Source: Rhizobium sp. JAB6 (GTDB taxonomy: Bacteria > Pseudomonadota > Alphaproteobacteria > Rhizobiales > Rhizobiaceae). From it: a stretch of DNA of 64,000 nucleotides. Location of the stretch: contig NZ_PYJQ01000011.1 of NCBI RefSeq assembly GCF_003024605.1, positions 124,001-188,000 of the forward strand, read 5' to 3'. Position numbers and translations under genes: made by a program. Of the stretch, positions 2,905-52,279 are shown piece by piece. Below the pieces are notes generated by a model. The model saw only the letters and a list, made by a program, of their open reading frames with translations, searched no databases and was not told the origin of the DNA. Numbering within the stretch: position 1 is the first letter of the stretch; each line of letters opens with the position of its first letter.

Positions 2905-2925
2905 TTGCCGCATATCCAATTGTGG

Positions 2926-3543: not shown

Positions 3544-3569
3544 ACTCGGGACTCTCTAGCCTTGTATTG

Positions 3570-34578: not shown

Positions 34579-37500
34579 TCACTTTGTCTCGAGCTTCGCA
34601 AGCGCCAATGCAAGCGCCCTCTCAGACAGCGTGTAGATCGAAGCATTTTCGGTATAGACGAGCATGCAGTCGATGCGCTTTCCCGGATAGAGCGGCGAGA
34701 GGATCTCGCGATAGATGGCAAGCTGCGCTTTGTGAGCGAAGGGGATGTTGCTTTCCTGGCCGGGCGGCACGCGATTCGTCTTGTAGTCGAGAATGACGAC
34801 GCGATCGTCCAGGTCAGCCAGCCGGTCGATGCGGCCGGAGACGGCATAGGACTGGCTGCCGAGCTTCAGTGTGCCCATGATCGAGACTTCCGCCTGCGCA
34901 TGGGTGCTGAACGTGCCTTGCAGATCCGGATGCGAGAGCAGCGCCATGACCGACTTCACCAGTGCCTCTTGCTCGGCCTGCGGCCAGAAGCGCGCGGCCC
35001 GATCGGCATAGCGCCGGGCGGCATCGGCCCGCTCTTCGGCCGCGATGTCAGGCAAGGTCTGCAGCATGCGGTGAATGAAGCGGCCCTTCTGCAGGGCGCG
35101 GTCGGATTTGGCCTTCTCGCCGAAAAGCGCCGAGGTGACAAGCAGATCGTCGGCTTCCTCGTCGATGACGGTGCCGACGCCGGAGGGGCTCAGCGGCCGT
35201 GGCAGGCTTCTTTGCGGCGGCAGCGGGCGTTTGAGGCCGGCAGGCAGGCCAGCCCGTTCCGAGCGTTTCTCATGCTCTCTCGCAGTCTCGAATTCGAGCT
35301 GGACCTGGGCAATCCGCCAGCTCAAGCCTTGCCAGTCGCCATCCGGGCCGGTGAAGGTCTTCTGCGTGCAATATAGTTCATGCCCGCGCAGCGCCGCGGA
35401 AATCATCGCGTGCCAGGTATCGGCATTTTCGCGGACGCCACGATAGCCACAGATGATCAGCCGGTCGGCGGCGCGCGTCATGCCCACATACAGCAGCCGG
35501 CGATACTCCTCCTCCGCCAGCGCCTGCAGCCGTGCTGTATCGGCCTGCGTCAGCGAATTGGCAAGCGCCGAGACCGGCACCCAGACCGGCAGCGGAATTT
35601 CGTCTCTGCCGGTTTCGATCAGCCGCAGCTTTGGCAGGTGCGTATGGGTGAAGGCCTTGCCGCCGCCATCGACGAGAAAGACGATCGGCGCTTCCAGTCC
35701 CTTCGAGGCGTGCACGGTCATGATCCGCACCTCGTTGCGGCCCTTGTCCTGTTCGCGCTTGACAGTCGGCGCTTCCAGCTCCAGCGTCGAGATGAAGGAT
35801 TGCAGGCCGGGCAGGCCGCTCGTCTCGTGATCGAGCGTGAAGGTCAGGAATTCGTCGAGGATATCGCTGACTTCTGTGCCGAGGCGCGCCAGGAATTGCC
35901 GCCTGCCGCCGAAGCTTCCGAGCACGCGCGCATAAAAATCATGGACAGGAAGGCTCTTCGACAAGGCAAGGAAGGTTCTCAGCCGTCCGACCGTCTGACT
36001 GAAGCGTTCATGGCCGTCTGCGGCAAATCTCTGCAGGTGGCTCCAGACGCTTTCCTCATCGTCGCGGTAGGCGGCAATCGCAAAGACATCCTCTTCGCTG
36101 AGGTCGAACAGCGGGCTCTTCATGAGCGCGCAGAGCGAAAGATCGTCTTCCGGCAGCAGCAGGAAGCGGCCGAGTGCGAGAAGATCCTGAATGGCGATAT
36201 GGCTCGTCAGCACCAGACGATCGGCGCCGGCAACGGGAATATTGCCGCGCCGCTTCAGGGCGCGGGTCAGCGCGTTGACGAAGCTGTCGCGTTTGCGCAC
36301 CAGTACGAGAATGTCGCCGGCCTCGATGAAGCGGGCCTTTCCCTTCTCGATGATCGTTTCCCGGCCGATAAGATTGCCGATCGTATGCGCCATCCGTCGC
36401 GCCAGAATGGCGGCGGGCGCGCTTTCAGGCGTCGAATCGAAGGGCGCCGTCCAGTCCTCTTCCTTGGCGGCCGGCTCCGGCGCGATCATGTCCCAGAGAT
36501 CGACGGCGCCGGGATGGCCGATGCGGCTGGAGCGATGCACGACAGGCTCGTTGACGGCACTGAGGCCTCGGGCATTCTCCGCACTGGTAAAGACATGGTC
36601 GACGGCGCCGAGCACATCGGCAGTCGAGCGGAAGGAGAGGGGCAGGCGGATCGACGAGAATTGCTGGCCGCTCGCCGCCACGCGCCGCCGCGTGCGGTCG
36701 CTCTCCTCGGAAAACCGTTCGGGACGGGCGCCCTGGAACGAATAGATCGATTGCTTCTCGTCACCGACGGCAAAGATCGTGCGTAGCGTCGGCCGGGCGC
36801 TGTCGCCGGAGAAGAAGTCCTCCGCCAGCGACTGAATGACGCTCCACTGAATCGGGCTCGTATCCTGCGCCTCATCGACGAGAATGTGATCGATGCCCTG
36901 ATCCAGCTTGTAGTGGATCCACGGTCCGACATCCTTCTTGGTCAGAAGATCGGCCGTGCGGGTAATGAGATCCTCGAAATCGAGCTGGCTGCGCCGCTTC
37001 TTCAGCTCCTCATAGTCGCGGTTCAGGCGATCGGCGAGAACGAGAGCGGCATGGGTGGCGCGATACATCCGCATCAGCCTCAGCCGGTCGCGGCTGGCAA
37101 CGACGTGGGCGCGTGCCTCCGCGACCGCTTCGGCGAGGGCCGGCGCATCGGTGAGCATGGCCTTGACTAAGAACTGGCTGTCCGATTTCGGTTCGCCCCT
37201 GGCGGTCAGCATGGCCTTTTCGAGGATTTCGACGCGGGCAAGCGGATCTGCCTCGCGCTTGGCAAGGCGCAGCGCATAAGCGACTTCCTGAGCCTTGGCG
37301 CCGCCCTTCTCGTCCGCAAGCGTGAGATAAAGCTCCAGCGTTGCGCCTGAGAGGCCGGGCAGCGGCCAATATTGCTCGGCAATGCTCGTTTCCGTCTCAC
37401 CGGGCATAAGGCCGAGCCGGGCGAGCAGTGCCGTTTCGATGCCGCCTTTGCGCTCGGCTGCTTCTGTGAAACGGCGGATGGCGTTGCGGTTGGCGACGAT

Positions 37501-38145
37501 ATCGCCGAGCAGTGTCTCGAGCCCGGATTCGTCGCCGAGATCGAGCACATAGTCGAAAGCTCGCGCCAGTTCGGCATCGCCACGTGGCGTCGTTGCCGTC
37601 AGCAATGCGCGACGTGCATCCTCGAGTAGGACTTCGGCGGCTCGATCGTCGAGAACGGAGAAGTGGCCGGCGACGTTTGCTTCGAGCGGAAATTGATGCA
37701 GCAAGGCCTCGCAAAAGGCGTGGATGGTCTGGATCTTCAGCCCGCCCGGCGTTTCCAGTGCCTTGGCAAAGAGCCGCCGCGCCTCGGCGAGCTTGAAGAC
37801 GTCAGGCTCCTTGCCCTCGATATCCGCAATGCGTGTCTTCAGCTCCTCGTCCGGCATCGTCGCCCATGCGGCAAGCCGGTCGAACACACGGTTCGACATT
37901 TCAGACGCTGCGGCCTTGGTATAGGTGAGGCAAAGGATGGAGGAGGGTCGCGCGCCTGCCAGAAGCAGACGGATGACACGCTGCGTCAGCACATGCGTCT
38001 TACCGGAGCCGGCATTGGCCGAAACCCAGGCCGAGCGTTCGGGGTCGGAGGCGATCGATTGCTGAATCGTCGTCCAGCTGATCCAGATGCCCGGATCGTC
38101 GCCTTCGGGCAGATTGGCGAAGCCCTCGGCGGAAAAATCACTCAT
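34579..38145 (-). CDS. addA: Double-strand break repair helicase-nuclease AddA
   Basis: AddA is the UvrD-type helicase and nuclease subunit of AddAB, the alphaproteobacterial counterpart of RecBCD. It resects DNA ends for RecA. The 1188-residue protein has Walker A ANAGSGKT (43-50), helicase motif [15 protein letters not shown], motif [17 protein letters not shown] and motif [12 protein letters not shown]. The C-terminal PD-(D/E)XK nuclease carries LDYKTN, with D1120 and K1122. The ATG at 38145 overlaps the addB stop by eight bases and has AGGAAGG upstream. Confidence 0.96.
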
Positions 38146-41100
38146 CGCCGTCGCCTTCCTGCTCAATCTCCGCCGTCGACCATTCCGAGACGCGGGCCAG
38201 ATGATCGTAATCGCCGCCATACTCGAACTGCTGCGCCGGGATGAGCCGCGACGAAAACCCTTTCTCGCCCGACTGCAGCAGCGAGACGAATTTCACCAGC
38301 TGATCCATCGATTCCTGCGCGAGATCCATAGCCGACTTCGTTTCCGTCTTGCCCGCGCGGCCGGAATGTTCGTTGTTGACCTGGTCGACCTTGAAGCGGT
38401 CGCCGGGCCGCAGCCGGACATAAAGCAGGTTCTCGGGGATCAGCGCGCCGATATTGCGGAAGGCGCCGGCCTTCAGCGCGTAGGCTTCCAGCGCCAGCTG
38501 CGGATCGAGCAGTGCGCGCGCCTGCGGCGGCGAGGGGTTGTAGCCGGTCTTGTAATCAATGAGATCGGCGCCCTTGTCGTTCTTGATGTCGATGCGGTCG
38601 GCAACGCCGGTCAACCGAATGCCGATCGGTTCGATCTCGACGCTGGCCGGCACTTCCGTTGCCGTTTTACGCACTTCGGGCCGCCTTTGCGCTTCCCAGG
38701 CAAGGAAAGCGCGCGCCACTTCGCGAAAGCGTGGCCGCCAGACACTGTCGATGTGAACGGGCAGCCGCTCGACATCGAAAAGCTCAGCAATGATGTGATC
38801 CATGGCCAGCGCCGCCTCGGGCGTGCCGGCCATATGCCCTTCGCGGACGAAGCGATCGATGATCTTGTGATAGAGCGTGCCGCGCTCGGCCGGGCCGGGA
38901 TCGCGGTTGAACGGGTCGACCGGATCGAGCCGCAGCACGCGCCGGGCATAGATCGCATAGGGATCGCGCCGCAGCCGCCCCACCTCGCTGAAGGAATAGC
39001 TTTTCGGCTGCAGTTCTACGGGCGGCTTCGGTGCCGGGCGCAGCGCCGGCGCCTGGTTTTCGCCCTCGTCGATCATCGCGGCCCAATGGCGATATTGATC
39101 GCCACGCGCCTTCATGGCCTCTTCCAATTCCTTGCCGCCCAGCGCGATCAGCCGCTGCAGCCAGCGTGACGCGACCGTCGGCGTCGAGCCCTGGCGCAGC
39201 GCGCGGGAATAGATGAGATCACGCGCCCCGTTCGCCATTTCGAAATCATGCGCGAGCTGGCCGATGCGGCGCTCCGGCGGTTCCAGGCCGATCTCCGTTT
39301 TCATGCTGCGGGAAATGAAGGGATTATTCGCGGTTTGCCCGGGCCAGGAGCCTTCGTTCAACCCGCCGAGGATCAGCGTATCGACGCTCTGCAGGCGTGC
39401 TTCGAGCGTACCGAAAATGAAGAGGCGGGGATGGCTGAGCGCCCGCGGCTTCACCGCCTGGCCCACTGAGAGTGCCGCCATGATGTCGATCCATTGCACG
39501 CCGTCGGCCTCAAGCTGACCTTCGGTTTCGATGACATCCCGAAGGAGGCTGGCAAGCGTATCCCCGGCCTCGCCGGACCAGAGGCCCGCCAGACTGCTGC
39601 GCTCGTCGACGGCCACGGCTTCGAGGGCGCGGCCTGTACGCTCGGCCCAATCCGAAAGTGTGAGGAAACCCTCTGACGCGGGCAGGGAAAGCGCCGATAC
39701 CAGCGGTTCGCATGCCGCAGTCACTCGCTGGGCCAGAGTCCGCGCGTGCTCGATGGCCTCGGGCGGCAACGCTTTGCGCCATTGCGGCGCGTGCCGGTCA
39801 TCGGCCTGTTCCGTCACGCGGTCGTGGAGCAGGCCTTCCAGCCTGCCGATCTCGATGTTGTCGACACCGCCTCGGAGTGCCAGGATCTCCAGCGCATCGA
39901 CGCCCGGCTGGTGTGTCTCCGCCGGCAGGCCGAACAAGGCAAGGGGATGTTTCAGCAGCGCGACGACGGCAACGGGATCTCCAGGGCGAAGGGTTGCTTC
40001 AAGCAGCAATTGCAGCAGCGTGCCCTGGGGCGTGGCGTTCAGCGGCGTTCCGGCCGAATCGTCGGCGGTGATGCCGAAGCGGGCAAGCTCGGCGGTCACG
40101 CGCCGCGCCAGATTGCGGTCGGGCGTGATCAAGGCCGCCTGGCTTTCGCCGCCATTACGTCCTGGTTTCTCCAGCGCCAGCCGCAGGGCGATGGCGATGG
40201 CGGTCGCCTCCTCGCGCTCGTTGGCAGCCTCGATGAGCGCGACGTCGGCAAACGCATTCGCGATCGCATCGGGAGGAAGCGTCTTGCGCCAGCTTCCCCA
40301 GCCGCTCGTCGCCTTGGCCGGCGCCAGCGCGCGCGACAGGATCTGCGCCCGCATCTGCATGGTTTCAGCCGCATCCGCGATGGGTTCGACATCGCGCCGG
40401 GTGACCCGCAACCGCTTCAGCAGCAGCGAAAGACCATATTGCGGGTGGCTGCGGCTGGTCGGATCGGCTCTTTCACCGATGGATGTCTCCGGCGCCACGA
40501 GCTGCCAATCCTCCTCCGGCATCGCAAGATCGAGGCCGGGCAGCACGATTACGCCTTGCGGCAAAGAGGCGACCGCTGCAATCAGCTCCGCTGTTGCCGG
40601 CACCGAGCCGGTCGAACCGGCAATAATGACAGGCCCGGGATGCCGCATCGTGGCCATGCGCTGCGCTTCTGCGCGCAGGATGGCATTGCGGTTGCGGGCG
40701 GGTGATGATTTGCCGAGTTCCGCAAGGCGCGCCGGCCAGAAGGCGCTGGCAATCGCCAGGAATTCCGCCGTCAGCTGCCACCAGAGCGCATGATCCTCCG
40801 CGCTGAGATTGGCAAGCTCGCTCCATTCGCGGTCCTCCGTCTCCAGCGAATCGATGAGTTCGGCGAGATTGCGCGCGAGCCATATGGCGTCAGCCGGGCT
40901 TGCCGGCGCCACCAGCGGCGAATCGGAGTGAATGTCGCGCACGATCTGCGGTAGCTTGTTGCGCCAGGCAAGGATCAGCCGCGCCAGTTCCAGGAGCCGT
41001 GCCGTGTTGGCGAGCGGCTGCGCCAGATCGGCCGTTCCCGGCAGGGTTTCTTCGAAATAACCGCTGTCGTCGTCGGTTTCGCCGAGCGGGCGAATGACCG

Positions 41101-41329
41101 GCAGGATAGCGGAGCGGCCGCCGAGCAGATCGACGAATTCCGAACGCAGCACGCGCGCCGCGCGCCGCGTCGGCAGAAAGATGCTGACCTTGGCAAGCGA
41201 CAGCGGGTCGGCCGGATCATGGCGGAAATGCTCGGTGAGCCGACCGTCGCAGAGCGCTGTCGCAAGGGTCTTCAGGAAGGGCAGGCCCGCCGGAATTGTC
41301 AGAATGCGCTGCCGGTGTCCGCCTGCCAT
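38138..41329 (-). CDS. addB: Double-strand break repair protein AddB
   Basis: AddB is the partner of AddA. Its inactivated helicase domain usually recognises Chi-like sequences, and its C-terminal nuclease cuts the other strand. The 1063-residue protein has an N-terminal helicase-like region (IFLPTRRAARVL) without an intact P-loop. The C-terminal nuclease motif is LIDYKTGY, with D925 and K927. Only about two cysteines are present, so the four-cysteine iron-sulfur cluster of Bacillus AddB is missing. The ATG at 41329 is four bases after murU. Confidence 0.93.
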   Translation of the reverse strand: MAGGHRQRILTIPAGLPFLKTLATALCDGRLTEHFRHDPADPLSLAKVSIFLPTRRAARVLRSEFVDLLGGRSAILPVIRPLGETDDDSGYFEETLPGTADLAQPLANTARLLELARLILAWRNKLPQIVRDIHSDSPLVAPASPADAIWLARNLAELIDSLETEDREWSELANLSAEDHALWWQLTAEFLAIASAFWPARLAELGKSSPARNRNAILRAEAQRMATMRHPGPVIIAGSTGSVPATAELIAAVASLPQGVIVLPGLDLAMPEEDWQLVAPETSIGERADPTSRSHPQYGLSLLLKRLRVTRRDVEPIADAAETMQMRAQILSRALAPAKATSGWGSWRKTLPPDAIANAFADVALIEAANEREEATAIAIALRLALEKPGRNGGESQAALITPDRNLARRVTAELARFGITADDSAGTPLNATPQGTLLQLLLEATLRPGDPVAVVALLKHPLALFGLPAETHQPGVDALEILALRGGVDNIEIGRLEGLLHDRVTEQADDRHAPQWRKALPPEAIEHARTLAQRVTAACEPLVSALSLPASEGFLTLSDWAERTGRALEAVAVDERSSLAGLWSGEAGDTLASLLRDVIETEGQLEADGVQWIDIMAALSVGQAVKPRALSHPRLFIFGTLEARLQSVDTLILGGLNEGSWPGQTANNPFISRSMKTEIGLEPPERRIGQLAHDFEMANGARDLIYSRALRQGSTPTVASRWLQRLIALGGKELEEAMKARGDQYRHWAAMIDEGENQAPALRPAPKPPVELQPKSYSFSEVGRLRRDPYAIYARRVLRLDPVDPFNRDPGPAERGTLYHKIIDRFVREGHMAGTPEAALAMDHIIAELFDVERLPVHIDSVWRPRFREVARAFLAWEAQRRPEVRKTATEVPASVEIEPIGIRLTGVADRIDIKNDKGADLIDYKTGYNPSPPQARALLDPQLALEAYALKAGAFRNIGALIPENLLYVRLRPGDRFKVDQVNNEHSGRAGKTETKSAMDLAQESMDQLVKFVSLLQSGEKGFSSRLIPAQQFEYGGDYDHLARVSEWSTAEIEQEGDGDE

Positions 41330-41333
41330 AGGC

Positions 41334-42065
41334 TCACGCAAACGCCCGGAAATTCCGGATCGTTTCCTCCGCTTCGCCGACCGCCTCCGGCGTGCCGACA
41401 GTCAGCCAGTGGCCGTCGAGCATCGTGCCATAGAGCCGACCCTTGGCGATGGCCCTGTCGTAATAGGTATTGATGTTGAAGGCGTCGTCTGGCGCGTCAT
41501 CGAGAAACGAAGGATTGATGACCAGCGTCCCGGCATAGACAACACCATTACCGGTGGCGACGCTATAGCGCGACAGGCGGCCGTCTTCTGCCATGCTGAA
41601 ATCATTCTTGCCGTTATGGCCTGTCGTCTTATCCAGCGCGACGCAAAGCATACCGAAATCCATGCGTATAGCATCGAAGAATCCGGCTAAGCGCTCGAGA
41701 TTCGTTGGTTGATCTTCTCTTTCCCCAATCCAGAAAAGGTCCGAATTCATAACGAAGACGGGATCCCGGCCTAGAAGCTTCAATCCCTTTGCCAACCCGC
41801 CGCCATTGTTCATCAACGCATCCCGCTCGTCGGAGATCAGGATTTCAAGGCCACGATAGCCGCGCAGATGCGCTTCCATCTGGTCGGCATGGTGATGGAC
41901 GTTGACGACGGCTCGCTCTACACCGGCCTGCACCAAGGCATCCAGCGTATAGTCGATCATCGGCTTGCCGGCGATCTTCACCAGTGGCTTCGGGATAGTG
42001 TCGGTGATCGGCCGCATGCGGGTTCCGAGCCCCGCGGCCAATACCATGGCTTGCTTGATGGTCAT
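41334..42065 (-). CDS. murU: MurU-like sugar-1-phosphate nucleotidyltransferase
   Basis: The 243-residue protein has the nucleotidyltransferase signature MVLAAGLGTRMRPITDTIPK, the sugar-binding LMNNGGGLAKGL, and the metal-binding aspartate in VMNSDLFW. Its place next to an AmgK-type kinase suggests MurU, which makes UDP-MurNAc from MurNAc-1-phosphate in the peptidoglycan recycling route defined in Pseudomonas putida. The ATG at 42065 has only a weak upstream GAG. An in-frame ATG at 42101 is an alternative. A different sugar specificity remains possible. Confidence 0.82.
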   Translation of the reverse strand: MTIKQAMVLAAGLGTRMRPITDTIPKPLVKIAGKPMIDYTLDALVQAGVERAVVNVHHHADQMEAHLRGYRGLEILISDERDALMNNGGGLAKGLKLLGRDPVFVMNSDLFWIGEREDQPTNLERLAGFFDAIRMDFGMLCVALDKTTGHNGKNDFSMAEDGRLSRYSVATGNGVVYAGTLVINPSFLDDAPDDAFNINTYYDRAIAKGRLYGTMLDGHWLTVGTPEAVGEAEETIRNFRAFA

Positions 42066-42139
42066 TTCGTCTCGAACTTTCGATTCATATTTTCTTTCCA
42101 TAGCACAAGGCCGGAAAGCCGTCGCCGGGTCTCTGGCCC

Positions 42140-43651
42140 TTATATCAGGCCAATCCCGGCCTTCTCGCACCATTCGCGCAAGGGTGCGAGTGCTTCATGC
42201 TCGAAGGCGATGGCGAGATAGGCGAGCGTGCGCGGCATGTGCTTGAGATAGCCCGGTTTGCCGTCGCGCTGTAAGAGCCGCACCCAGAGGCCGGCCAGCT
42301 TGCAATTGCGCTGCGCCGACATGATCGCCCAGCTCTTCAGGAATTTCGCCTCGTCAAAGCCGCCCTGGGCGTGACGAAGGGCGAGATAGTCGGCCAAGAG
42401 CCGGTCATGCAGATCGCGCTCGATCGTCACCCGCGCATCCTGCACCAGCGAGGCTACATCGTAGGAGGTCGGACCGATCATCGCGTCCTGGAAGTCGATG
42501 AGGCCGATCCGCTTTATGCCCTTTTCCGCCGCCCGCCAGATGATGTTAGGCGAATGCATATCGCGCAAAAGCAGGTTCTTTTCCGCATCTTCAAGCTGAT
42601 CGATCAGCTTGTCCCAGATGGCCAGATAGTCGGCCCGCTCCTCGTCGCTTGCCGGCGTGCCGCGCTTCCAGGGCAGATGCCAGTCGAGCAGCAGCCGCGC
42701 TTCCATCTTCATGGCGGTCCGGTCGAAATCCGGAATGTGATGGATGTGCTCGGGGGTGACTGGAATATTGCGGGGAATCGAAAGGCTGTGCAGATGCGCA
42801 AGGCAGGCGACGCTTTCGCGATAGCGCTCGGCAATCGGTTTTCCCTGAGCATCGAGCACGCCGTCGGTGCCGAGATCTTCGATCAGAAGGATGCCCTGGT
42901 CGTAATCGGCGGCAAAGATCTGCGGAGCGGCAAAGCCCTTTTCGCGCAGGATGTTGGCGATCGCCACGAAGGGATAAGTGTCCCAGGCAAGATGCGCGAC
43001 CTTTGGATAGGGTTTCCCATCCAGCACGGGCGGTCCTTCGGGCAGGCCCGGCCAGTCCATCAGGATTATGCGGCCGCTGCTATCCTTCGGGTGGACGGAT
43101 TCGTAGGCCCGAAGCGAGGCATCGCCCGTCAGGAAGCGCCTGTGCGCGCCGCGATAGCCGTGCGCATCGAGAAAGGCGCGGATAGCAAGCACACGCTCCA
43201 TGCGTGTCATCTGCTTGGCCGGCGCTGTAAGGACGGCGCGCCGTCCTTCGCCCTCATGCGTGAGCTTGAGATCGATGCGCTCTCCCGGCAGCTCGCCTTC
43301 GGCCATTTCGGGCCACTCGACCAGGCAGATGCCGGTCTGCAGGGCTTCGTCGAAGCCGAGTTCCGTCAGTTCGCTGGGGTCGCCGAGGCGATAGAGATCG
43401 AAATGCGAGACCGGGATGCGCAGCTCGTAGGATTGCACGAGGGTAAAGGTCGGGCTCGGCACGTCCAGTTCGGCATCGTCGGCCATGGCGCGCAGCAGCG
43501 CGCGGGCGAGCGAGGATTTCCCTGCGCCGAGATCGCCTGATAGTGCCAGACAGTCGCCGGCCTTCAAGGCCAGCGCCAGATCTTCGCCGAGCTGAGCCGT
43601 GGCGGCGTCATCTGCGAGGAAAAGGGAAATGCTGCTCTCCGAGGCTGTCAT
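42140..43651 (-). CDS. TsaE - AmgK-like kinase fusion protein
   Basis: The 503-residue protein joins two enzymes. Residues 1 to about 145 are TsaE, the ATPase of the tRNA t6A37 complex: Walker A GDLGAGKS (39-46), SPTFTLVQSYE, then LVEWPEM. From about 148 the protein is an aminoglycoside-phosphotransferase-type kinase with the catalytic loop LLRDMHSPNIIW and the metal-binding GLIDFQDA. It resembles AmgK, which phosphorylates the anomeric carbon of MurNAc and GlcNAc. The ATG overlaps the divL stop by four bases. The murU-like gene follows 74 bases later. Confidence 0.88.
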   Translation of the reverse strand: MTASESSISLFLADDAATAQLGEDLALALKAGDCLALSGDLGAGKSSLARALLRAMADDAELDVPSPTFTLVQSYELRIPVSHFDLYRLGDPSELTELGFDEALQTGICLVEWPEMAEGELPGERIDLKLTHEGEGRRAVLTAPAKQMTRMERVLAIRAFLDAHGYRGAHRRFLTGDASLRAYESVHPKDSSGRIILMDWPGLPEGPPVLDGKPYPKVAHLAWDTYPFVAIANILREKGFAAPQIFAADYDQGILLIEDLGTDGVLDAQGKPIAERYRESVACLAHLHSLSIPRNIPVTPEHIHHIPDFDRTAMKMEARLLLDWHLPWKRGTPASDEERADYLAIWDKLIDQLEDAEKNLLLRDMHSPNIIWRAAEKGIKRIGLIDFQDAMIGPTSYDVASLVQDARVTIERDLHDRLLADYLALRHAQGGFDEAKFLKSWAIMSAQRNCKLAGLWVRLLQRDGKPGYLKHMPRTLAYLAIAFEHEALAPLREWCEKAGIGLI

Positions 43652-46227
43652 TCTGCTGCGACGGAGTGGGGCAGTTCGGCCGAAGGAATCCGGCAGGTGA
43701 CCGTCGTTCCCTTGCCCGGCTGGCTTTCGATCGAAACCTGGCCTTCATGCAGGCTGACGAAGCTTTCGACGATGGAAAGACCGAGGCCGGCACCGCTGCG
43801 CTTGCCGCCCTTGCCGCCGGAGGCAAAGCGGTTGAACACCGTGTTGATCAAATCCTCCGGGATGCCGGGACCCTTGTCGGCAACCGAGAAGACGAAATCC
43901 GTGCCTTCGCGCCCGCATTTCAGCGAGATCGTCGATCCCTCCGGCGCGAAATTGGCGGCATTGGTCAGAAGCTTGAGCAGGATCTGCTTCAGCCGCTGCT
44001 GATCGGCGACGATGGAGCCGAGATGCGCCGGCACGGTGATTTCAAGCATCACGCCGCTTTCCTGAAGCCGGTCGGCGATCTGCATCGATACCTCGTCGAG
44101 CAGTTCGCTAAGCACGATTTCGGAATAGTTCAGGCGCATGATGCCGGCATCCAGCGTTGCGAGATCGAGAATATCGTTGACCAGCGTCAGCAGCACCGAG
44201 GATGAGGTGGAGATATGGTCGATATATTCGGCCTGCCGCTCGTTCAGCGAGCCGATGCCCGGCGTTTTCAGCAGGTCGGTGAAGCCGATGATATTAGTCA
44301 AGGGCGAACGCAGCTCGTAGGAGACGTGCTGGACGAAATCGTTCTTCAGCTCGTCCGCCTTCAGCAGCGCTTCGTTCTTTTCGGTCAGCGCGCGCTCGGC
44401 GCGCACGCTGTCGGTCTTGTTGACGAAGGTCAGCATGGTCTGCGCATTCGGCAGAGGGATGACGGCATAGTCGAGCACGAGATTGGAATAGAGCTCCAAT
44501 GTGCCCTGCGATGAGGGCCGCTCGTCGTCGAAACTGGTGATCTGCTCGGCGAACCGCTTCCAGCCGTCCGGCCGGTCGTACGAAGGCGCGCAAGCCTCGG
44601 CCAGAGCCTGGATATGCGTTCCGGGCTTCGCCTGTGCCTCGGTGATGTTCCAGAGAATGCGGAAGGCGGGGTTCGATAGCCTGATGCGGCCATCGGGGCC
44701 GAAAACGGCGACGCCTTCGGAAAGATGGTCGATGGTTTCGCCCTGGACCTTGACCAGCGTGTTGTAGCGCGTTTCGAGATTGACCTGCTCGGTCAGGTTC
44801 TCGAATACCCAGGTGGCGCCGCCCTGCGGATGCGCGGTCGCGAAAACCTTGAGGATCTGGCCGTTGGGCAGATGCCAGAGATCCGTCTGCGTGTCGAGCG
44901 CGCGATAGACGGAAAGGACGTCGTCCTTCCATGTCTTCCAGTTCAGCTGCTCCGGCAGCTTCTTGGCGCCGCGCAGCCGATCCAGCAGCTCGCTATTGTC
45001 GGGGCGCTTCTCAAGGAAAGCGATATCGAGTTCCCAGAGTTGGACAAAGGCTTGATTGTAGAATTGCAGCCGTCTGTCGCCATCGAAAATCGCAACCGGT
45101 GTCGCCAGATGATCGAGGGTTTCGGCGTGGCTCTTCAGCGTGCGGGCAAGCTCGGCGCGAACCGCTTCCGCTTCGGAAATATCGATCGCGATGCCGGCGG
45201 AGCCGTTCGGCGATTTGACGTCGACAACGTCGAAGAAGGTGCGATTGCCGTGTACGACGGTGGAAATCTTGTCGTGGAACGGCGACTCCGGCGTGGCCGC
45301 CGCGCGGATGCGTTCGCGGGTCACGGTCGTCAGAAATTCCCGTCCCTCGCGCACGGCTTCATCGGCCGACACCGCTTCCACAGCCTCGCCGTAGGCCTGA
45401 TTGACCCAGGTAAGCTTGCCTTCCGCGTCCCGCTGCCAGACCGGCAGGTCGATGGCGTCGAGCAGATTCTGGAATGCGGAGATCGAGGTCATCAGCCGGT
45501 CGCGTTCGATCTTCAGCTCGGCGAGTTCGGCGCGCAGATTGTTGAGCGCAATGAAGCGGACGAAGGCGCGCCCGCCGGAAATGCGGCCCTGCGCTTCCAG
45601 GATTTCCTCACGGTTGGTCTCGACCACCATGTCGAAGCTCTGGCCGCTACCGCGCAGCTTGTCGATCGCCTTGTCGAGCTCGCCGGCCGACCAGGATTTC
45701 AGCCAGCGCCCGAAGGCGAGGAATTCGTTGTCCTGCGGCGCCCCGGTCTCGACCGGCAGCTGCCCCAGGAGTTCCGGCCGTGCATTCTGGCCATCCCAGA
45801 TGATGATCCGGCGGTTTTTGTCGGCAATCAGCGCCTGATACTGCGAAATGCGCTGGTTGGCATCCGAAAGGGCCGTGCGGATTTCGCGGCTTTCGCTTTC
45901 CATGTTGCCGCGCTGCCGGACCATCCACATGGTCGACAGAAGCGCGGCGGAAATCACGCCGATGATGACGGAGAAGACGGCCATTTCCGAGGAGGTGAAG
46001 AGGCGCATGCTCGTTTGCGCGGCGTCATTGCCCTGCGCGAGAACCGGCCCGGCCAAACCGCTCAACAGACCACCGAAAACGCTGAGCCTCAACAGGCGGC
46101 TGAGACGGGCGAGCCGGCCCTTGCCCTGCTTCGCTCCTGTCGAAGGCCGATATGCACTGCCCTGCAGCAACAGCGCCGCCGCGCGGCGGAACGCTGGCTG
46201 ATGCAGGTTGTCTTCCCCTTCAATCAT
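43648..46227 (-). CDS. divL: DivL-type atypical sensor kinase (tyrosine replaces histidine)
   Basis: The 859-residue protein has two N-terminal hydrophobic segments (about 48-65 and 82-103) and three PAS repeats (starting near 255, 390 and 505). A histidine-kinase core follows in which the H-box reads VSYELRSPLT. The phospho-accepting histidine is replaced by tyrosine 637 (codon TAC at 44317-44319). ATP-site motifs are kept (TNAANFAP, ADKGPGIP, GAGLGLSIV). This is the hallmark of DivL, which in Caulobacter controls CckA and so CtrA rather than acting as a kinase. It overlaps the tsaE-amgK gene. Confidence 0.9.
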   Translation of the reverse strand: MIEGEDNLHQPAFRRAAALLLQGSAYRPSTGAKQGKGRLARLSRLLRLSVFGGLLSGLAGPVLAQGNDAAQTSMRLFTSSEMAVFSVIIGVISAALLSTMWMVRQRGNMESESREIRTALSDANQRISQYQALIADKNRRIIIWDGQNARPELLGQLPVETGAPQDNEFLAFGRWLKSWSAGELDKAIDKLRGSGQSFDMVVETNREEILEAQGRISGGRAFVRFIALNNLRAELAELKIERDRLMTSISAFQNLLDAIDLPVWQRDAEGKLTWVNQAYGEAVEAVSADEAVREGREFLTTVTRERIRAAATPESPFHDKISTVVHGNRTFFDVVDVKSPNGSAGIAIDISEAEAVRAELARTLKSHAETLDHLATPVAIFDGDRRLQFYNQAFVQLWELDIAFLEKRPDNSELLDRLRGAKKLPEQLNWKTWKDDVLSVYRALDTQTDLWHLPNGQILKVFATAHPQGGATWVFENLTEQVNLETRYNTLVKVQGETIDHLSEGVAVFGPDGRIRLSNPAFRILWNITEAQAKPGTHIQALAEACAPSYDRPDGWKRFAEQITSFDDERPSSQGTLELYSNLVLDYAVIPLPNAQTMLTFVNKTDSVRAERALTEKNEALLKADELKNDFVQHVSYELRSPLTNIIGFTDLLKTPGIGSLNERQAEYIDHISTSSSVLLTLVNDILDLATLDAGIMRLNYSEIVLSELLDEVSMQIADRLQESGVMLEITVPAHLGSIVADQQRLKQILLKLLTNAANFAPEGSTISLKCGREGTDFVFSVADKGPGIPEDLINTVFNRFASGGKGGKRSGAGLGLSIVESFVSLHEGQVSIESQPGKGTTVTCRIPSAELPHSVAAE

Positions 46228-46431: not shown

Positions 46432-47832
46432 TCAGTATCTGTAGTGGTCGGACTTGAACGGACCCTGCGGCGTCACGCCGATATACGCAGCCTGCTCGCT
46501 GGAAAGCTCCGTCAGCTTCACGCCGAGCTTGGCGAGATGCAGGCGGGCGACCTTCTCGTCGAGGTGCTTCGGCAGAACGTAGACTTCGTTCTTGTACTGG
46601 CCGGGCTTGGTGAAAAGCTCGATCTGCGCCAGCGTCTGGTTGGTGAAGGACGCCGACATGACGAAGGACGGATGGCCGGTGGCGTTGCCGAGGTTCAGGA
46701 GGCGACCTTCCGACAGCAGGATGATGCGGTTGCCCTTGGCGAACTCGACCATGTCGACCTGCGGCTTGATGTTCGTCCACTTCAGGTTTCGCAGCGCGGC
46801 AACTTGGATTTCATTGTCGAAGTGGCCGATATTGCCGACGATCGCCATGTCCTTCATCGCACGCATGTGATCGATGCGGATGACGTCCTTGTTGCCGGTC
46901 GTGGTGATGAAGATATCGGCGGTGGAAACGACGTCCTCGAGCTGAACGACTTCATAGCCGTCCATGGCAGCCTGCAGGGCACAGATCGGGTCGACTTCCG
47001 TGACCTTGACGCGGGCACCGGCGCCGGAGAGCGAAGCGGCGGAACCCTTGCCGACATCGCCATAGCCGCAGACGACGGCGACCTTGCCGGCCATCATGAC
47101 GTCGGTGGCGCGGCGGATACCGTCGACCAGCGATTCCTTGCAGCCGTACTTGTTGTCGAACTTCGACTTGGTGACGCTGTCGTTGACGTTGATGGCCGGG
47201 AAGGGTAGCAGGCCCTTCTGGCTGAGCTGGTAGAGGCGGTTGACGCCCGTGGTGGTCTCTTCGGTCACGCCCTTGATGGCGTCCCGCTGCTTGGTGAACC
47301 AGCCGGGCGTTGCCTGCAGGCGCTTCTTGATCTGCGCGAAGAGGATTTCCTCTTCTTCCGAATGCGGGTTGGAGAGCACGTCCTCACCGGCTTCCGCACG
47401 GGCGCCGAGCAGGATGTACATGGTGGCATCGCCGCCATCGTCCAGGATCATGTTGGAAAGACCGCCATCGGCCCACTGGAAGATCTTGTCGGTGTAGGTC
47501 CAGTAGTCCTCGAGGCTCTCCCCCTTGACGGCGAAGACCGGAACGCCGGATGCGGCGATGGCGGCGGCGGCATGATCCTGCGTCGAGAAGATGTTGCAGG
47601 AGGCCCAGCGCACCTGAGCGCCGAGGGCGACCAGCGTCTCGATGAGAACGGCCGTCTGGATCGTCATGTGCAGCGAACCGGTGATGCGGGCGCCCTTGAG
47701 CGGCTGCGCTTCGCCGAATTCGGCGCGGCAGGCCATCAGGCCCGGCATCTCGGTTTCGGCGATTGCGATTTCCTTGCGACCATAGTCGGCAAGGCCGATA
47801 TCCGCGACGATGTAGTCCTTTTCAGTGCTCAT
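46432..47832 (-). CDS. ahcY: S-adenosylhomocysteine hydrolase
   Basis: AhcY splits S-adenosylhomocysteine into adenosine and homocysteine, removing the inhibitor of SAM-dependent methyltransferases. The 466-residue protein has the NAD-binding loop [13 protein letters not shown], the N-terminal MPGLMACR, and the C-terminal [13 protein letters not shown] with [17 protein letters not shown]. The ATG at 47832 has GGAG six bases upstream. An operator-like palindrome lies about 130 bases upstream at 47961. Its own terminator separates it from divL. Confidence 0.97.
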
Positions 47833-47960
47833 GAAGGTCTCCAGCCTGAACGATGCAGCCGCGCCGCGGGCAGACGCCTCGGCCGAATGCAACAAGAATT
47901 GCACGCTGACAAGCGCGTGGATGATGCCGTGTATCAGGCTTCAGGGCGGAAATCAATAAT

Positions 47961-48012: not shown

Positions 48013-48288
48013 CTATATTTCCTCGCCGAACTTGTTGGAGACCAACTGGTCGAGCGCTTCGAGCGCCTCGGCGGCCTGGTTGCCGCTTGCCGTGACCAGC
48101 ACGCTGCAGCCGGGGCTGGCTGCCAGCATCATCAGGCCCATGATCGAAGTTCCGCCGACCGTGGTGCCGTCCTTCGAAACGGTGATCGCGGCGTCGTAGG
48201 CTTCGACGGTCTGCACGAATTTCGCCGAGGCACGGGCATGCAGGCCCCGCTTGTTGATGATCAGGAGTTCCCGGGAAAGCTCGGTCAT
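48013..48288 (-). CDS. ptsH: Phosphocarrier protein HPr
   Basis: HPr carries phosphate from enzyme I to EIIA proteins. The 91-residue protein has the catalytic histidine 17 in RGLHARAS. The regulatory serine 48 lies in GGTSIMGLM, the target of HprK. The ATG gives the normal length, although no clear ribosome-binding site precedes it. It lies 19 bases downstream of the EIIA gene. With no sugar permease nearby, it belongs to a regulatory PTS. Confidence 0.95.
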   Translation of the reverse strand: MTELSRELLIINKRGLHARASAKFVQTVEAYDAAITVSKDGTTVGGTSIMGLMMLAASPGCSVLVTASGNQAAEALEALDQLVSNKFGEEI

Positions 48289-48307
48289 GGGGGCGGTGTT
48301 TGCCTCG

Positions 48308-48709
48308 TTATTTGCCACTGAGCACACGACTGGCCACGTTGATATATTTGCGCCCGGCCTCTGACGCCTCCACCAGAGCCCTTTCCATGTTGTTGTCGCC
48401 GCGCACACCCGCGAGCTTGATCAGCATCGGCAGATTGACGCCGGCGATGACCTCGGTGTGGCCGCTATTCATGACGGAGATTGCGAGATTGGAAGGGGTG
48501 CCGCCGAACATATCGGTGAGGATGACGACGCCGTGCCCGTCGTCGGCACCGGCAACGGCCTGCAGGATATCCTGCCGCCGCTTGTCCATGTCGTCTTCGG
48601 GACCAATGCATACCGTTTCTATGAACTTCTGCGGACCAACGACATGCTCGACAGCATGCCGAAACTCTTCAGCCAGCTTGCCATGAGTGACAAGCACAAG
48701 TCCAATCAT
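48308..48709 (-). CDS. PTS EIIA component, mannose family, regulatory
   Basis: The 133-residue EIIA-Man-type protein has the phospho-accepting histidine 9 in LVLVTHGKLAEEF. It also has the fold segment VVILTDMFGGTPSNLA, and ends in GVNLPMLIKL plus a C-terminal helix. No EIIB, EIIC or EIID is nearby. In alphaproteobacteria this EIIA works with HprK and HPr in regulation rather than transport. The ATG has GGAG about nine bases upstream. It lies between hprK (138 bases upstream) and ptsH. Confidence 0.92.
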   Translation of the reverse strand: MIGLVLVTHGKLAEEFRHAVEHVVGPQKFIETVCIGPEDDMDKRRQDILQAVAGADDGHGVVILTDMFGGTPSNLAISVMNSGHTEVIAGVNLPMLIKLAGVRGDNNMERALVEASEAGRKYINVASRVLSGK

Positions 48710-48847
48710 GATATTACTGCTCCCATCGCATACGCAAACAGATGGCCCATATCGCAATGCAGCAATGTCGTCCACCGTGGGGGGACATCTTGGCGATGAA
48801 AAGACGAAGTGCAAGCTTAAAATACAGGATTGCGCGCCCATGCGGAC

Positions 48848-49312
48848 CTAAATGGCCGATTCATCCAAACTCGCGCCGATTTTCGCCATTATTATGGCGA
48901 GCGGATTCGCGGAGGTTGCGGCCAGCCGGATCACCGGCAACCGTATGGACGCCGTGATGTCGATCTGCTCGTCCTCCGGTGGCATCCTTTCTGCCGTCGC
49001 CGGATCGACAGGGCGGACGGCGAAGTGCATTTCGCCCTCGGAGATGTAAGGCATCCGGACGATGCCAGTGTAGCGGATTTCCATGAGACCCGCGATCGAG
49101 GGCGGGCATTTCGCGACGATGGAGCCGTTTTGCTCGCTGATCAGCACCCGGTCGTCGGCCACGAGGTTTGCTGTCAGTCCAAACGGCTTGGCGGCGGCAA
49201 GGCAGGAAAAGGCGAGGGTGGATTTGCCGCTGCCGGAGGGGCCGAGAAACAGCAGGCCGGTCTTGCCGATGACGATGGCCGTTGCGTGGATATTGATCGC
49301 CTCACCGGTCAT
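48848..49312 (-). CDS. hprK: HPr kinase/phosphorylase, short alphaproteobacterial form
   Basis: HprK phosphorylates and dephosphorylates the regulatory serine of HPr. The 154-residue protein consists of the catalytic domain only, with P-loop GPSGSGKST (24-32) and the segment LMEIRYTGIVRMPY in the signature region. The N-terminal domain of the Firmicutes enzyme is absent, as is usual in this class. I use the ATG at 49312 with GTGAG seven bases upstream. A GTG at 49324 overlapping the chvG stop is an alternative. It follows chvG directly. Confidence 0.93.
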   Translation of the reverse strand: MTGEAINIHATAIVIGKTGLLFLGPSGSGKSTLAFSCLAAAKPFGLTANLVADDRVLISEQNGSIVAKCPPSIAGLMEIRYTGIVRMPYISEGEMHFAVRPVDPATAERMPPEDEQIDITASIRLPVIRLAATSANPLAIIMAKIGASLDESAI

Positions 49313-49320
49313 CGGTGCGC

Positions 49321-51159
49321 TCACGCCTGCGTCTTGGCCGGCAGCGACAGAATGAAGCGGGCACCAAGCAGTGTCGAGCCGTCGGTATCGACGATATTCT
49401 CGGCGCGCAGCGAGCCGCCATGCGCTTCGGCGATCTGCCGGCTGATCGAAAGGCCGAGGCCGGAATTCTGTCCGAAACCTTCGGATTCGGGCCGGTCGGT
49501 GTAGAAGCGTTCGAAGATGCGGTCGATATTTTCGGCCTGAATGCCCGGGCCGTTATCTTCGATATAGATGACGCAACGCGTCCGCGTCCGCGTCAGCCGC
49601 ACGGTGATCTTGCCGGTTTCCGCCGGGACGAAGGATCGTGCGTTTTCGATGAGATTGGTGACGATCTGGCCGATGCGCAGGTCATGGCCGTCGATGGAGA
49701 AGTTCGCTTTATTGCCCGGCTTGCGGTCGACGATATAATCGATCTCGACGGCCTTCTTGCTGTGCCCGACCTGTCTGGAAATATCGATCATGTCGCGCAG
49801 CAATACTTCCAGATCGAGCGACTTCGCATCCGAGCGTGCAAGCTCCGCATCGAGGCGCGATGCGTCGGAGATGTCGCTGATCAGGCGGTCGAGGCGGCGA
49901 ACGTCGTGCTGGATCACGTCCATCAACCGCTTCTTGGAATCGTCGCTCTTGGCGAGCGGCAGCGTTTCGACGGCGCTGCGCAGAGACGTCAGCGGGTTTT
50001 TCAGCTCGTGGCTGACGTCGGCGGCAAAACTCTCGATCGCATCGATGCGATCGTAGAGCGCCGATGTCATGTCGCGCAGCGCGATAGACAGATTGCCGAT
50101 CTCGTCCTGGCGGGCGGAAAAGTCCGGGATTTCCTCGCGCTCCTTCGCCCCGCCGCGCCGCACGCGGATCGCCGCAGCCGAAAGCCGGCGCAGCGGATTG
50201 GCGATGGTGGAGGATAAAAGTAGCGACAGCACGACGTTGACCAGCGTCGCCACGCCGAAGACCCGCATGATGGCGAGGCGCTCGGCGTGAACGATCTTAT
50301 CGATATCGCCGGCCTGCGTGGAGAGCAGCAAGACACCGAGAACGGCGCGGAAGCGCTGGATCGGCACGGCGACCGAAACGATCAGCTCGCCCTTCTCCGT
50401 GGTGCGGACAACGGCGCCGCGCACACCGGTCAGCGCATTCATGACCTCTGGATAGATGGAGCCGTCACCGCCGGGCGCTTCCTTATAGACGGGGAGATTT
50501 CCCGGCTGCAGCATCTTGTTGAGCAGGCCGCTGAACCAGTCGGACCAGCTCTGCTTCTCGTCTTCGACGGGCGGCAGATCGTAGCGCAGCACCTGGCCGC
50601 GCGAATAGAGATGACGGCTGTCGAGCAGCAGGTTCGCATCGGCGTCAAAAATGCGGGCCCGGGTGCGCGTCGGCGAGATCAGCCGCGTCAGCACCGGCGC
50701 CACCTTTTCAGGATCGATCGGGAATTCCAGATCTTCGTCGTTCGGAACAGGGGTGATGCTCTGGCCGGCCTGCAGCTCCAGCAGCTTCTGCGGATCGATG
50801 GTGATGGAGTTGGTGTCGACCGATGCCGAAGCCGAGACGGCACCGGCGATGATCTCGCCTTGCGTCAGCAGGCTCTCGACGCGGGCGTCGATCAGGCCTT
50901 CGCGGAACTGGTTGAGGTAGAGAATGCCGCCGACGAGGACGACGAGCGCGGCCAGATTGAAGAACAGGATGCGCCGCGTCAGGCTTGAGAACACGGCATT
51001 GCCGAAGATACGGCGGATCAGCACGAAGGGATGCGTCCAGCGCCGGCGCGCGATTCGAGCGCCGCTCGGGCTTTCCGAGTCGTCTATATCTCTGTCCTGC
51101 ACCAGCTGTGCCAAGCCAACGGCCCTTTCGAAGAACGGGACCGCCGATCCCGTCCGCAT
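49321..51159 (-). CDS. chvG: ChvG/ExoS-type sensor histidine kinase
   Basis: ChvG senses acid and envelope or host signals in rhizobia and agrobacteria and phosphorylates ChvI. The 612-residue protein has a first membrane helix (about 62-82), a periplasmic sensor domain, and a second helix near 300. A HAMP linker (IANPLRRLSAAAIRVRRG) follows. The kinase core has phospho-histidine 384 in VSHELKNPLTS and ATP motifs IENARS, EDNGPGI and GLGLSIS. The ATG at 51159 gives a somewhat longer N-terminus than some homologues. chvI lies 39 bases upstream, hprK just downstream. Confidence 0.95.
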   Translation of the reverse strand: MRTGSAVPFFERAVGLAQLVQDRDIDDSESPSGARIARRRWTHPFVLIRRIFGNAVFSSLTRRILFFNLAALVVLVGGILYLNQFREGLIDARVESLLTQGEIIAGAVSASASVDTNSITIDPQKLLELQAGQSITPVPNDEDLEFPIDPEKVAPVLTRLISPTRTRARIFDADANLLLDSRHLYSRGQVLRYDLPPVEDEKQSWSDWFSGLLNKMLQPGNLPVYKEAPGGDGSIYPEVMNALTGVRGAVVRTTEKGELIVSVAVPIQRFRAVLGVLLLSTQAGDIDKIVHAERLAIMRVFGVATLVNVVLSLLLSSTIANPLRRLSAAAIRVRRGGAKEREEIPDFSARQDEIGNLSIALRDMTSALYDRIDAIESFAADVSHELKNPLTSLRSAVETLPLAKSDDSKKRLMDVIQHDVRRLDRLISDISDASRLDAELARSDAKSLDLEVLLRDMIDISRQVGHSKKAVEIDYIVDRKPGNKANFSIDGHDLRIGQIVTNLIENARSFVPAETGKITVRLTRTRTRCVIYIEDNGPGIQAENIDRIFERFYTDRPESEGFGQNSGLGLSISRQIAEAHGGSLRAENIVDTDGSTLLGARFILSLPAKTQA

Positions 51160-51198: not shown

Positions 51199-51930
51199 TT
51201 ATGCAGCTTCGCGGAACCGGTAGCCGACGCCATACAGCGTCTCGATCATATCAAAATCGAGATCGACCATCTTGAATTTCTTGCGCAGCCGCTTGATGTG
51301 GCTGTCGATCGTGCGGTCGTCGACATAGACCTGCTCGTCATAGGCTGCATCCATCAGCGCGTCGCGGCTCTTGACTACGCCCGGGCGCTGGGCGAGCGAA
51401 TGCAGGATGAGGAACTCGGTGACGGTGAGCGTCACGGGCTCGCCCTTCCAGGTGCAGGTATGGCGTTCCTGGTCCATGACGAGCTGTCCGCGTTCCAGCG
51501 AGCGGGCCTGCTGCGCAGCGCCCGGCTTGGGGGCGGCTGCGCCGCCGGCAGCATTTGCGGCATCACGGGCGGAGGCGCGGCGGAGAACAGCCTTGACGCG
51601 TTCGACCAGCAGGCGCTGCGAGAACGGCTTGGTGATGAAGTCGTCGGCACCCATCTTTAAGCCGAACAGCTCGTCGATCTCTTCATCCTTCGAGGTGAGG
51701 AAGATCACGGGCAGATCGGATTTCTGCCGCAGGCGGCGCAAGAGCTCCATGCCGTCCATGCGGGGCATCTTGATATCGAAGATCGCCAGTTGCGGCGGCC
51801 GTGCCAGCAGGCCGTCCAGCGCCGAGGCTCCGTCCGTATAGGTCTCTACCTTATATCCCTCTGCTTCCAAGGCAATGGAAACGGAAGTCAGGATATTGCG
51901 GTCGTCGTCAACGAGCGCGATTGTCAACAT
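51199..51930 (-). CDS. chvI: ChvI response regulator (OmpR family)
   Basis: ChvI is the DNA-binding partner of ChvG and controls exopolysaccharide, motility, acid-response and pckA-linked genes in related bacteria. The 243-residue protein has a receiver domain with phospho-aspartate 52 in [12 protein letters not shown] and lysine in FITKPFSQ. An alanine-rich linker precedes a winged helix ending [19 protein letters not shown] chose the ATG at 51930 because GGAG lies nine bases upstream. An ATG 18 bases earlier lacks a site. Confidence 0.96.
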
Positions 51931-52279
51931 GGTGTTCGTCTCCGTCATCAGTGCGCATCTCCCGGATTTGGAATCCAGCCCAGGCGGTCTGCCAGTTCGG
52001 TCGGCGGTAACCTGGCGCGCTTATGGGGATAAAGGTGGAACAAATTGTGGCAAAGATAAAGGGGAGGATTGCGGTGAGGAGAAACCCTTGCGCAGGAGTT
52101 GTGTGACGTGAGGTCCCGCCTCCCTCTATTCAAACGATTTAAAATTATGAAAATTTATTTAAATCGATTAAATAACTGATATCATTAAATATTTTGTGTT
52201 TGGGTCTTGTCCTTTTAAAAGGACCCCTCTACGCTTTAGACAATTCTAACGGCCAAGCCCCTTTGTAGAGGAAAATGTG
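51931..52279. promoter_or_regulatory. Divergent chvI-pckA intergenic region
   Basis: This is 349 bases without a gene. The left part is GC-rich; 52135-52210 is strongly AT-rich. Two inverted repeats stand out: CGATTTAAA with a 14-base spacer and TTTAAATCG (52135-52166), and the perfect 16-mer GTCCTTTTAAAAGGAC (52209-52224), 55 bases before the pckA start. It should hold the divergent promoters of both genes. ChvI is a plausible regulator of pckA because the system is linked to it in relatives. Confidence 0.6.

What the first reader, a model, noticed from the sequence alone, without database searches (positions are those of the whole stretch)
41334..43651. tRNA t6A factor fused to a cell-wall-recycling kinase, next to MurU
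TsaE is joined in one polypeptide to an AmgK-like kinase, followed by a MurU-like transferase. AmgK and MurU would bypass de novo UDP-MurNAc synthesis and lower fosfomycin sensitivity. The fusion puts translation quality and peptidoglycan salvage under one promoter with divL.
Basis: partly seen in the sequence, partly recalled or inferred. Interest (0 to 1): 0.6.

Follow-up and report, generated by a model that had tools for sequence, protein, structure and literature searches.

The report
tRNA-factor and cell-wall-sugar-kinase fusion protein
A Rhizobium gene joins a tRNA-modification ATPase to a kinase that reuses cell-wall sugar; the joint gene is widespread in its order, seems to be two enzymes that merged inside an old operon, and in Bartonella the kinase half outlives its known pathway, hinting at a second job.

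Summary
Confirmed: a 503-aa frame (42140-43651, minus strand) joins a complete TsaE to a full-length AmgK-like kinase; a MurU-like gene follows (probable start 42065, not 42173). The fusion is no local oddity: it is seen full length in 150 of 199 Rhizobiales genomes (printed rows; 49 not printed), occurs in at least 10 of 237 other alphaproteobacterial genomes, and grew out of an older tsaE-amgK-murU-addB gene order with abutting or overlapping genes. Fosfomycin tolerance through AmgK and MurU is already published for Agrobacterium and Caulobacter, and co-transcription with divL for the syntenic Brucella operon; the fusion itself appears in no paper my searches found. New here: in 61 Bartonella genomes MurU and AnmK occur in the same 13. 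Of the 48 lacking both, 27 keep an intact kinase half under purifying selection (dN/dS 0.17 over ten pairs), with the catalytic aspartate in 26 of 27; 21 are reduced to TsaE alone, at four places on the best tree. So the halves are separable, and the kinase probably also does something that needs neither AnmK nor MurU. Novelty: new variant of a known kind.

The parts
43238..43615 (-). TsaE domain (residues 13-138) of the fusion; Walker A GDLGAGKS; the only TsaE above cut-off in the held genome
   Evidence: Pfam PF02367 121.5 bits; TIGR00150 over cut-off; own-genome search
42161..43180 (-). AmgK-like sugar kinase domain (residues 158-497); LRDMHSPN and DFQD motifs
   Evidence: PF01636 and NF045698; D364, H366, N369, D386, Q388 invariant in 27 fused proteins; closest PDB chain 3csv
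42140..43651 (-). whole fusion gene tsaE-amgK, 503 aa; domains joined by one predicted helix (residues 145-163)
   Evidence: one open frame; model pLDDT 92.7, pTM 0.89
41334..42065 (-). MurU-like nucleotidyltransferase, 243 aa, probable start ATG 42065
   Evidence: NF045697 E 1.3e-66; 4y7t and 8hhd best PDB matches; sequence
43648..46227 (-). divL; its stop overlaps the tsaE start (ATGA)
38138..41341 (-). addB, directly after murU (TTG 41341 or ATG 41329 start)
   Evidence: TIGR02786 1228.7 bits, over cut-off
34579..38220 (-). addA
   Evidence: TIGR02784 1491.8 bits, over cut-off
46432..47904 (-). ahcY, upstream in the same gene order
   Evidence: TIGR00936 595.3 bits, over cut-off
48013..48408 (-). 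HPr-type PTS protein
   Evidence: PF00381 90.4 bits, over cut-off
48308..48841 (-). PTS EIIA component
   Evidence: PF03610 102.1 bits, over cut-off
48848..49324 (-). short HPr kinase
   Evidence: PF07475 42.3 bits, over cut-off
49321..51159 (-). sensor histidine kinase in the place of bvrS
   Evidence: HisKA, HATPase_c, Stimulus_sens_1 over cut-off; name by gene order

Best explanation
One polypeptide carries two enzymes that work largely independently. The N-terminal half is the cell's TsaE, the ATPase of the TsaB-TsaD-TsaE complex that makes t6A in tRNA. The C-terminal half is an AmgK-type anomeric sugar kinase: it turns MurNAc (and probably GlcNAc) into the 1-phosphate, which the neighbouring MurU turns into UDP-MurNAc, bypassing MurA and so blunting fosfomycin. 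The fusion arose because tsaE and amgK were neighbours with overlapping or abutting ends in an old operon, so one small indel or stop loss could join them. Shown here: domains, motifs, gene order, wide spread in Rhizobiales, separability in Bartonella, and continued purifying selection on the kinase half where AnmK and MurU are gone. From the literature on relatives: MurNAc salvage, fosfomycin phenotype, co-transcription. Inferred: substrate of this kinase, independence of the two activities, how the fusion arose, and, from Bartonella, an extra kinase role that does not need MurU (simplest: GlcNAc-1-phosphate passed to GlmU).
For: Domain and PDB matches. Fusion spans the query in one frame in 150 of 199 order genomes. 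Unfused tsaE-amgK neighbours in 24 of 30 class-wide TsaE loci, 0 of the 24 fused, with a possible start 4 bases before the end of the tsaE stop in at least 8 of 24. At least 10 of 237 non-Rhizobiales genomes also fused, 9 of them checked frame by frame; 6 fused/split changes on a 63-sequence tree, several nodes weak. Agrobacterium, Caulobacter and Pseudomonas papers. Bartonella: MurU in 13 of 61 and AnmK in the same 13; kinase half broken or gone with TsaE whole in 21 of 61, at 4 places on the best tree.
Against: NCBIfam AmgK and MurU naming cut-offs are not reached. AnmK was not found in the window's own genome (73% complete, both congeners searched have it). Some lineages keep a MurU-like gene without detectable AmgK and 27 Bartonella keep AmgK without MurU, so kinase and MurU are not an obligate pair. 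The model gives a confident joint arrangement of both domains (pTM 0.89), which does not exclude crosstalk. One of the two Caulobacter studies found no significant effect of amgK loss on beta-lactam resistance and a weaker phenotype than for anmK.
Confidence: 0.8

Rival explanations
1. The two halves are functionally coupled: TsaE and the kinase sense or regulate each other, so that translation fidelity and wall-precursor supply are linked.
For: Fusion kept across most of an order and apparently formed more than once; tsaE-amgK adjacency also in at least 12 of 88 genomes outside the class, within 310 bp on one strand (printed rows only); well-defined joining helix and pTM 0.89.
Against: TsaE persists without the kinase in 21 of 61 Bartonella. 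Within Rhizobiales no kinase is found in 14 of 40 genomes that I chose (low scorers plus controls), and 13 of these 14 still match the fusion query, which must be through TsaE. Unfused arrangement is the rule in the class-wide loci.
Confidence: 0.12
2. The kinase half is kept in MurU-less Bartonella only because a folded C-terminus is needed for TsaE stability, not for catalysis.
For: dN/dS is low over the whole half. 20 of 73 Rhizobiales-conserved kinase positions are not kept in at least 25 of 27 there, against 8 of 73 not kept in at least 12 of 13 MurU-bearing Bartonella; Gly176 before the conserved DAS is kept in 14 of 27 against 13 of 13; one of 27 has the catalytic Asp changed (L237) and one has D177 changed.
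Against: Catalytic Asp kept in 26 of 27 and DFQD in 27 of 27; genomes whose frame ends just after TsaE keep TsaE whole.
Confidence: 0.2
3. Gene-prediction or assembly artefact: two genes wrongly joined by a lost stop.
For: In the class-wide loci outside Rhizobiales the genes are mostly separate.
Against: Same frame in 150 of 199 order genomes and nearly full-length matches in 80 of 80 loci kept, of which 39 were aligned over the junction.
Confidence: 0.01

Closest known systems
AmgK-MurU anabolic MurNAc recycling pathway (Pseudomonas; Caulobacter CCNA_03649/03650; Agrobacterium Atu0026/Atu0025)
   Same: Kinase that matches the AmgK model over nearly its full length, next to a MurU-like gene; the pathway gives fosfomycin tolerance in these organisms.
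   Different: Here the kinase is the C-terminal half of TsaE. No paper in the library holds both AmgK and TsaE. That Atu0026 is itself the fusion is inferred from the other Rhizobiaceae; I did not see its sequence.
TsaE (YjeE/YdiB) of the bacterial t6A complex
   Same: Full-length match over cut-off, Walker A and other invariant residues, single copy in the held genome.
   Different: Solved stand-alone TsaE chains are 141-184 aa; here about 350 residues of kinase follow.
16-gene bvrR/bvrS operon of Brucella abortus (PMC9491525, section 12 read)
   Same: Sensor kinase, HPr kinase, PTS EIIA, HPr, ahcY, divL, tsaE, nucleotidyltransferase, addB, addA stand in the same order in the window; RT-PCR shows co-transcription there.
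   Different: The Brucella list has extra small unknown genes; there the tsaE gene is listed only as TsaE and the MurU-like gene as mannose-1-phosphate guanylyltransferase; no kinase half is mentioned.
PDB 3csv, 'putative aminoglycoside phosphotransferase' of Silicibacter sp. TM1040
   Same: Best sequence and fold match of the kinase half (E 6.6e-41; TM-score 0.86 on the target).
   Different: Stand-alone protein of 333 aa with only a family-type name; probably an unfused AmgK (inference).

Membership tests
TsaE | Pfam/NCBIfam TsaE model above curated cut-off | tested here: met
   PF02367 121.5 (26.6); TIGR00150 106.9 (60.1)
TsaE | Walker A motif | tested here: met
   GDLGAGKS; G39, L41, G42, G44, K45 invariant in 27 sequences
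TsaE | t6A formation with TsaB/TsaD | not testable with these tools
   needs enzyme or genetics
AmgK | APH-type kinase fold and catalytic Asp / Asn / Mg-binding Asp | tested here: met
   PF01636 71.7 (23.2); D364, N369, D386 invariant in 27 (residue roles recalled); fold match 3csv
AmgK | NCBIfam AmgK naming cut-off | tested here: not met
   NF045698 204.6 against 500; NF045759 102 against 550; for this reason I call it AmgK-like
AmgK | next to murU | tested here: met
   MurU-like ORF 74 bp downstream
AmgK | MurNAc/GlcNAc anomeric kinase activity | not testable with these tools
   published only for relatives
MurU | NCBIfam MurU naming cut-off | tested here: not met
   NF045697 224.4 against 370; NF045761 144 against 250; hence MurU-like
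MurU | closest solved structures are MurU | tested here: met
   4y7t and 8hhd rank first and second of 76; the 8hhd sequence carries the MurU name, 4y7t is 'Nucleotidyl transferase' in the table (its MurU identity is recalled)
anabolic MurNAc recycling pathway | AnmK in the same genome | tested here: inconclusive
   not found in the 73%-complete own genome; found in congeners G406 and G550
anabolic MurNAc recycling pathway | MupP and muropeptide importer in the same genome | not tested
   no search made
DivL | Tyr in place of the phospho-acceptor His | tested here: met
   HVSYELRSPL; criterion recalled

The most novel reading that the evidence does not exclude
The kinase half of the TsaE-AmgK fusion has a second, catalytic role that needs neither AnmK nor MurU, and at times not even NagZ: for example making GlcNAc-1-phosphate for GlmU, or, more boldly, acting on the t6A machinery to which it is welded, much as Bud32, a subunit of protein-kinase-like fold (fold recalled), serves the archaeal and eukaryotic t6A complex. 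Bartonella keep it under selection after the classical pathway is gone.
Probability: 0.5. Interest if true: 0.65.

Novelty: new variant of a known kind. Interest (0 to 1): 0.45.

Why it matters
It would correct annotations (a 'TsaE' that hides a wall-sugar kinase, a 'mannose-1-phosphate guanylyltransferase' that sits in the place of the MurU-like gene), shows that most of a bacterial order carries a tRNA factor fused to a salvage enzyme, and gives a natural experiment in Bartonella that separates the kinase from its textbook pathway. If the second kinase role is real, AmgK is more than a feeder of MurU, and AmgK/MurU inhibitors, proposed as fosfomycin partners (PMC12346966, search listing only), could touch other processes.

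Tried and rejected
Internal translation start for a separate kinase: 13 of 40 fused proteins have any Met at residues 138-160 and no column has one in more than 6, so not supported.

Link between NagZ loss and kinase breakage in Bartonella: NagZ is intact in 12 of 27 kinase-intact/MurU-less genomes, partial in 1, a stop-bearing remnant in 4, without a match in 10; without a match in 21 of 21 kinase-broken ones. With 4 breaks on the tree, randomly placed breaks give the same pattern with frequency 0.06 (all absent) to 0.13 (all defective), so this stays a hint.

Substrate-switch residues: three weakly convincing positions (371, 399, 466), not interpreted.

Papers: AmgK+TsaE 0 papers; Atu0026 1 paper; YjeE+aminoglycoside phosphotransferase+fusion 0; bifunctional tRNA + threonylcarbamoyltransferase complex ATPase + phosphotransferase 0; AmgK+N-acetylglucosamine+GlcNAc-1-phosphate 0; AmgK+Bartonella 1 paper, the Agrobacterium one. 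Looser searches were seen as listings (up to 15 of 33, 4 and 2 papers); none of the listed titles or abstract starts tells of the fusion. PMC9654439, a t6A review, was seen in 12 passages; none describes it. The library is open-access only, so 'not in print' reaches no further. NCBI's automatic name for such proteins ('bifunctional ... TsaE/phosphotransferase') is recalled, not seen.

Full report
What is there. On the minus strand, 42140-43651 encodes 503 residues without a stop. Residues 13-138 are TsaE (PF02367, 121.5 bits against 26.6) and 174-434 an APH-type kinase (PF01636, 71.7 against 23.2). The NCBIfam AmgK model covers 158-497 at E 2.6e-60, yet at 204.6 bits it stays under the naming cut-off of 500, and the MurU model on the next gene gives 224.4 against 370. 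I therefore write AmgK-like and MurU-like. The MurU-like gene most likely starts at 42065. Upstream stand a sensor histidine kinase, a short HPr kinase, PTS EIIA and HPr, ahcY and divL; downstream addB and addA.

Structure. AlphaFold2 on an alignment of 40 fused sequences gives mean pLDDT 92.7 and pTM 0.89, with one helix (145-163) leading from the last TsaE strand into the kinase. Foldseek finds 3csv first (a phosphotransferase without assigned substrate, TM-score 0.86 on the target) and then TsaE chains. Phmmer also puts 3csv first.

How common. In 199 Rhizobiales genomes the fusion spans the query in one frame in 150, which fill the printed rows. The other 49 were not printed row by row. 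Of these, 26 were among the 40 genomes: 14 have no kinase match; 8 have the kinase in a frame of 491-505 aa, as a fusion would; 3 have it at contig ends (G401, G407, G414); in G571 it lies in two frames. G066 is seen fused. The remaining 22 I did not inspect.

Where it came from. The 30 best-scoring TsaE loci of 386 class genomes show amgK directly downstream in 24 and fused in none; 4 of the other 6 have addB next and 2 have a MurU-like gene and then addB. In at least 8 of the 24 a start overlapping the tsaE stop by 4 bases is possible. At least 10 of 237 non-Rhizobiales genomes, in seven families, have a fusion (printed rows). On a 63-sequence tree the state changes six times, but several nodes are weak. 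Outside the class, at least 12 of 88 genomes have TsaE and kinase rows within 310 bp on one strand (printed rows). The simplest reading is an old tsaE-amgK-murU-addB order with repeated joining of two abutting genes.

What it does. In Agrobacterium, fosfomycin Tn-seq pointed to AnmK, MupP, AmgK (Atu0026) and MurU (Atu0025) (PMC9790009, passages). In Caulobacter, delta-amgK accumulates MurNAc and is more fosfomycin-sensitive (PMC13046382, passages); a second group also saw fosfomycin sensitivity, but judged the beta-lactam effect not significant, where the first reports a moderate one (PMC11980594, passages). Pseudomonas AmgK was used to make both MurNAc-1-phosphate and GlcNAc-1-phosphate (PMC5371407, passages). 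In Brucella abortus RT-PCR shows one transcript of bvrR and 15 further genes down to trx-1, which includes divL, the tsaE gene and the nucleotidyltransferase gene (PMC9491525, section 12).

The Bartonella experiment. G529, with 1.5 Mb, kept the fusion but showed no MurU (best hit E 3e-8) and no AnmK. I then searched 61 genomes of its genus: 61 have TsaE and 40 the full fusion. MurU is in 13 and AnmK in the same 13, and these 13 have the full fusion. Of the 48 without MurU and AnmK, 27 keep an intact kinase half and 21 have a frame that ends 155-185 residues after the TsaE start, with the kinase in stop-riddled pieces or not recognisable. On a TsaE+DivL tree the 21 fall in four places: two single genomes, a group of 4 and a group of 15. 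The group of 4 is sister to a kinase-intact genome with support 99; some other nodes are weak (22-73), so fewer events cannot be excluded. Over ten edge-disjoint pairs among the 27 (20 sequences; 7 not used) dN/dS is 0.170 (95% 0.139-0.203) for the kinase and 0.142 (0.102-0.197) for TsaE; where NagZ is also defective in both members (five pairs) it is 0.184 (0.146-0.227) and 0.139; in four MurU-bearing pairs 0.115 and 0.113. The catalytic Asp of RDYHSPN is kept in 26 of 27 (L237 has Asn) and DFQD in 27 of 27. Against full function: 53 of 73 Rhizobiales-conserved kinase positions are kept in at least 25 of 27, while 65 of 73 are kept in at least 12 of the 13 MurU-bearing ones, and the Gly before the conserved DAS is kept in 14 of 27 against 13 of 13. 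So the kinase half is somewhat relaxed but clearly selected after its textbook partners were lost, and it can be lost without TsaE.

NagZ. A Glyco_hydro_3 match is intact in 13 of 13 MurU-bearing, 12 of 27 kinase-intact MurU-less, and 0 of 21 kinase-broken genomes. This suggests an order of loss (AnmK and MurU, then NagZ, then the kinase), but with four breaks it is not significant.

The converse case. In 6 of 7 genomes of f172 and in two genomes of f181 a MurU-like gene (37-47% identity) remains although no kinase is found in the genome; in two f131 genomes no kinase is found at the locus, and the rest of those genomes was not searched for it. In L203, L204, L206, L207, L209 and L210 the order is divL-tsaE-murU with the kinase missing and addB further on. 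MurU may thus have another source of its substrate there, or another substrate.

Verdict. A real, widespread fusion of two known enzymes, predictable in its main function. What is new is its spread and origin and the evidence that the kinase half has a life apart from MurU.

Noticed in passing
L203, L204, L206, L207, L209, L210 (Rhizobiales families f172 and f181, and family f131 of the class): MurU-like gene kept directly after tsaE while amgK is missing; in the f172 and f181 genomes no kinase is detected genome-wide, in f131 only the locus was examined.
   Followed up: partly
L273 (G571), about 2713-3824: Kinase half in two frames behind a TsaE, with a gap of nearly 800 bp before MurU: a decaying or split fusion, or a sequencing error.
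   Followed up: no
L211 (G388) and other small f170 genomes: Very divergent kinase half (29-32% identity) in 1.3-1.5 Mb genomes, with about 1.3 kb between kinase and MurU in G388.
   Followed up: no
PDB 3csv: A solved 'putative aminoglycoside phosphotransferase' that is probably an unfused alphaproteobacterial AmgK and could serve as its structural model.
   Followed up: partly
window residues 200-227 of the fusion: Insertion around GPPVxxGKPYxxxAHLA in the kinase N-lobe, present in the Rhizobiales rows and the f20 row but absent from the other fused lineages in the alignment.
   Followed up: no
window 51199-51948 (-) and 52277-53890 (+): ORFs that read as an OmpR-type response regulator and a divergent PEP carboxykinase (by eye), where Brucella has bvrR and pckA; the whole neighbourhood matches the Brucella operon.
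   Followed up: partly
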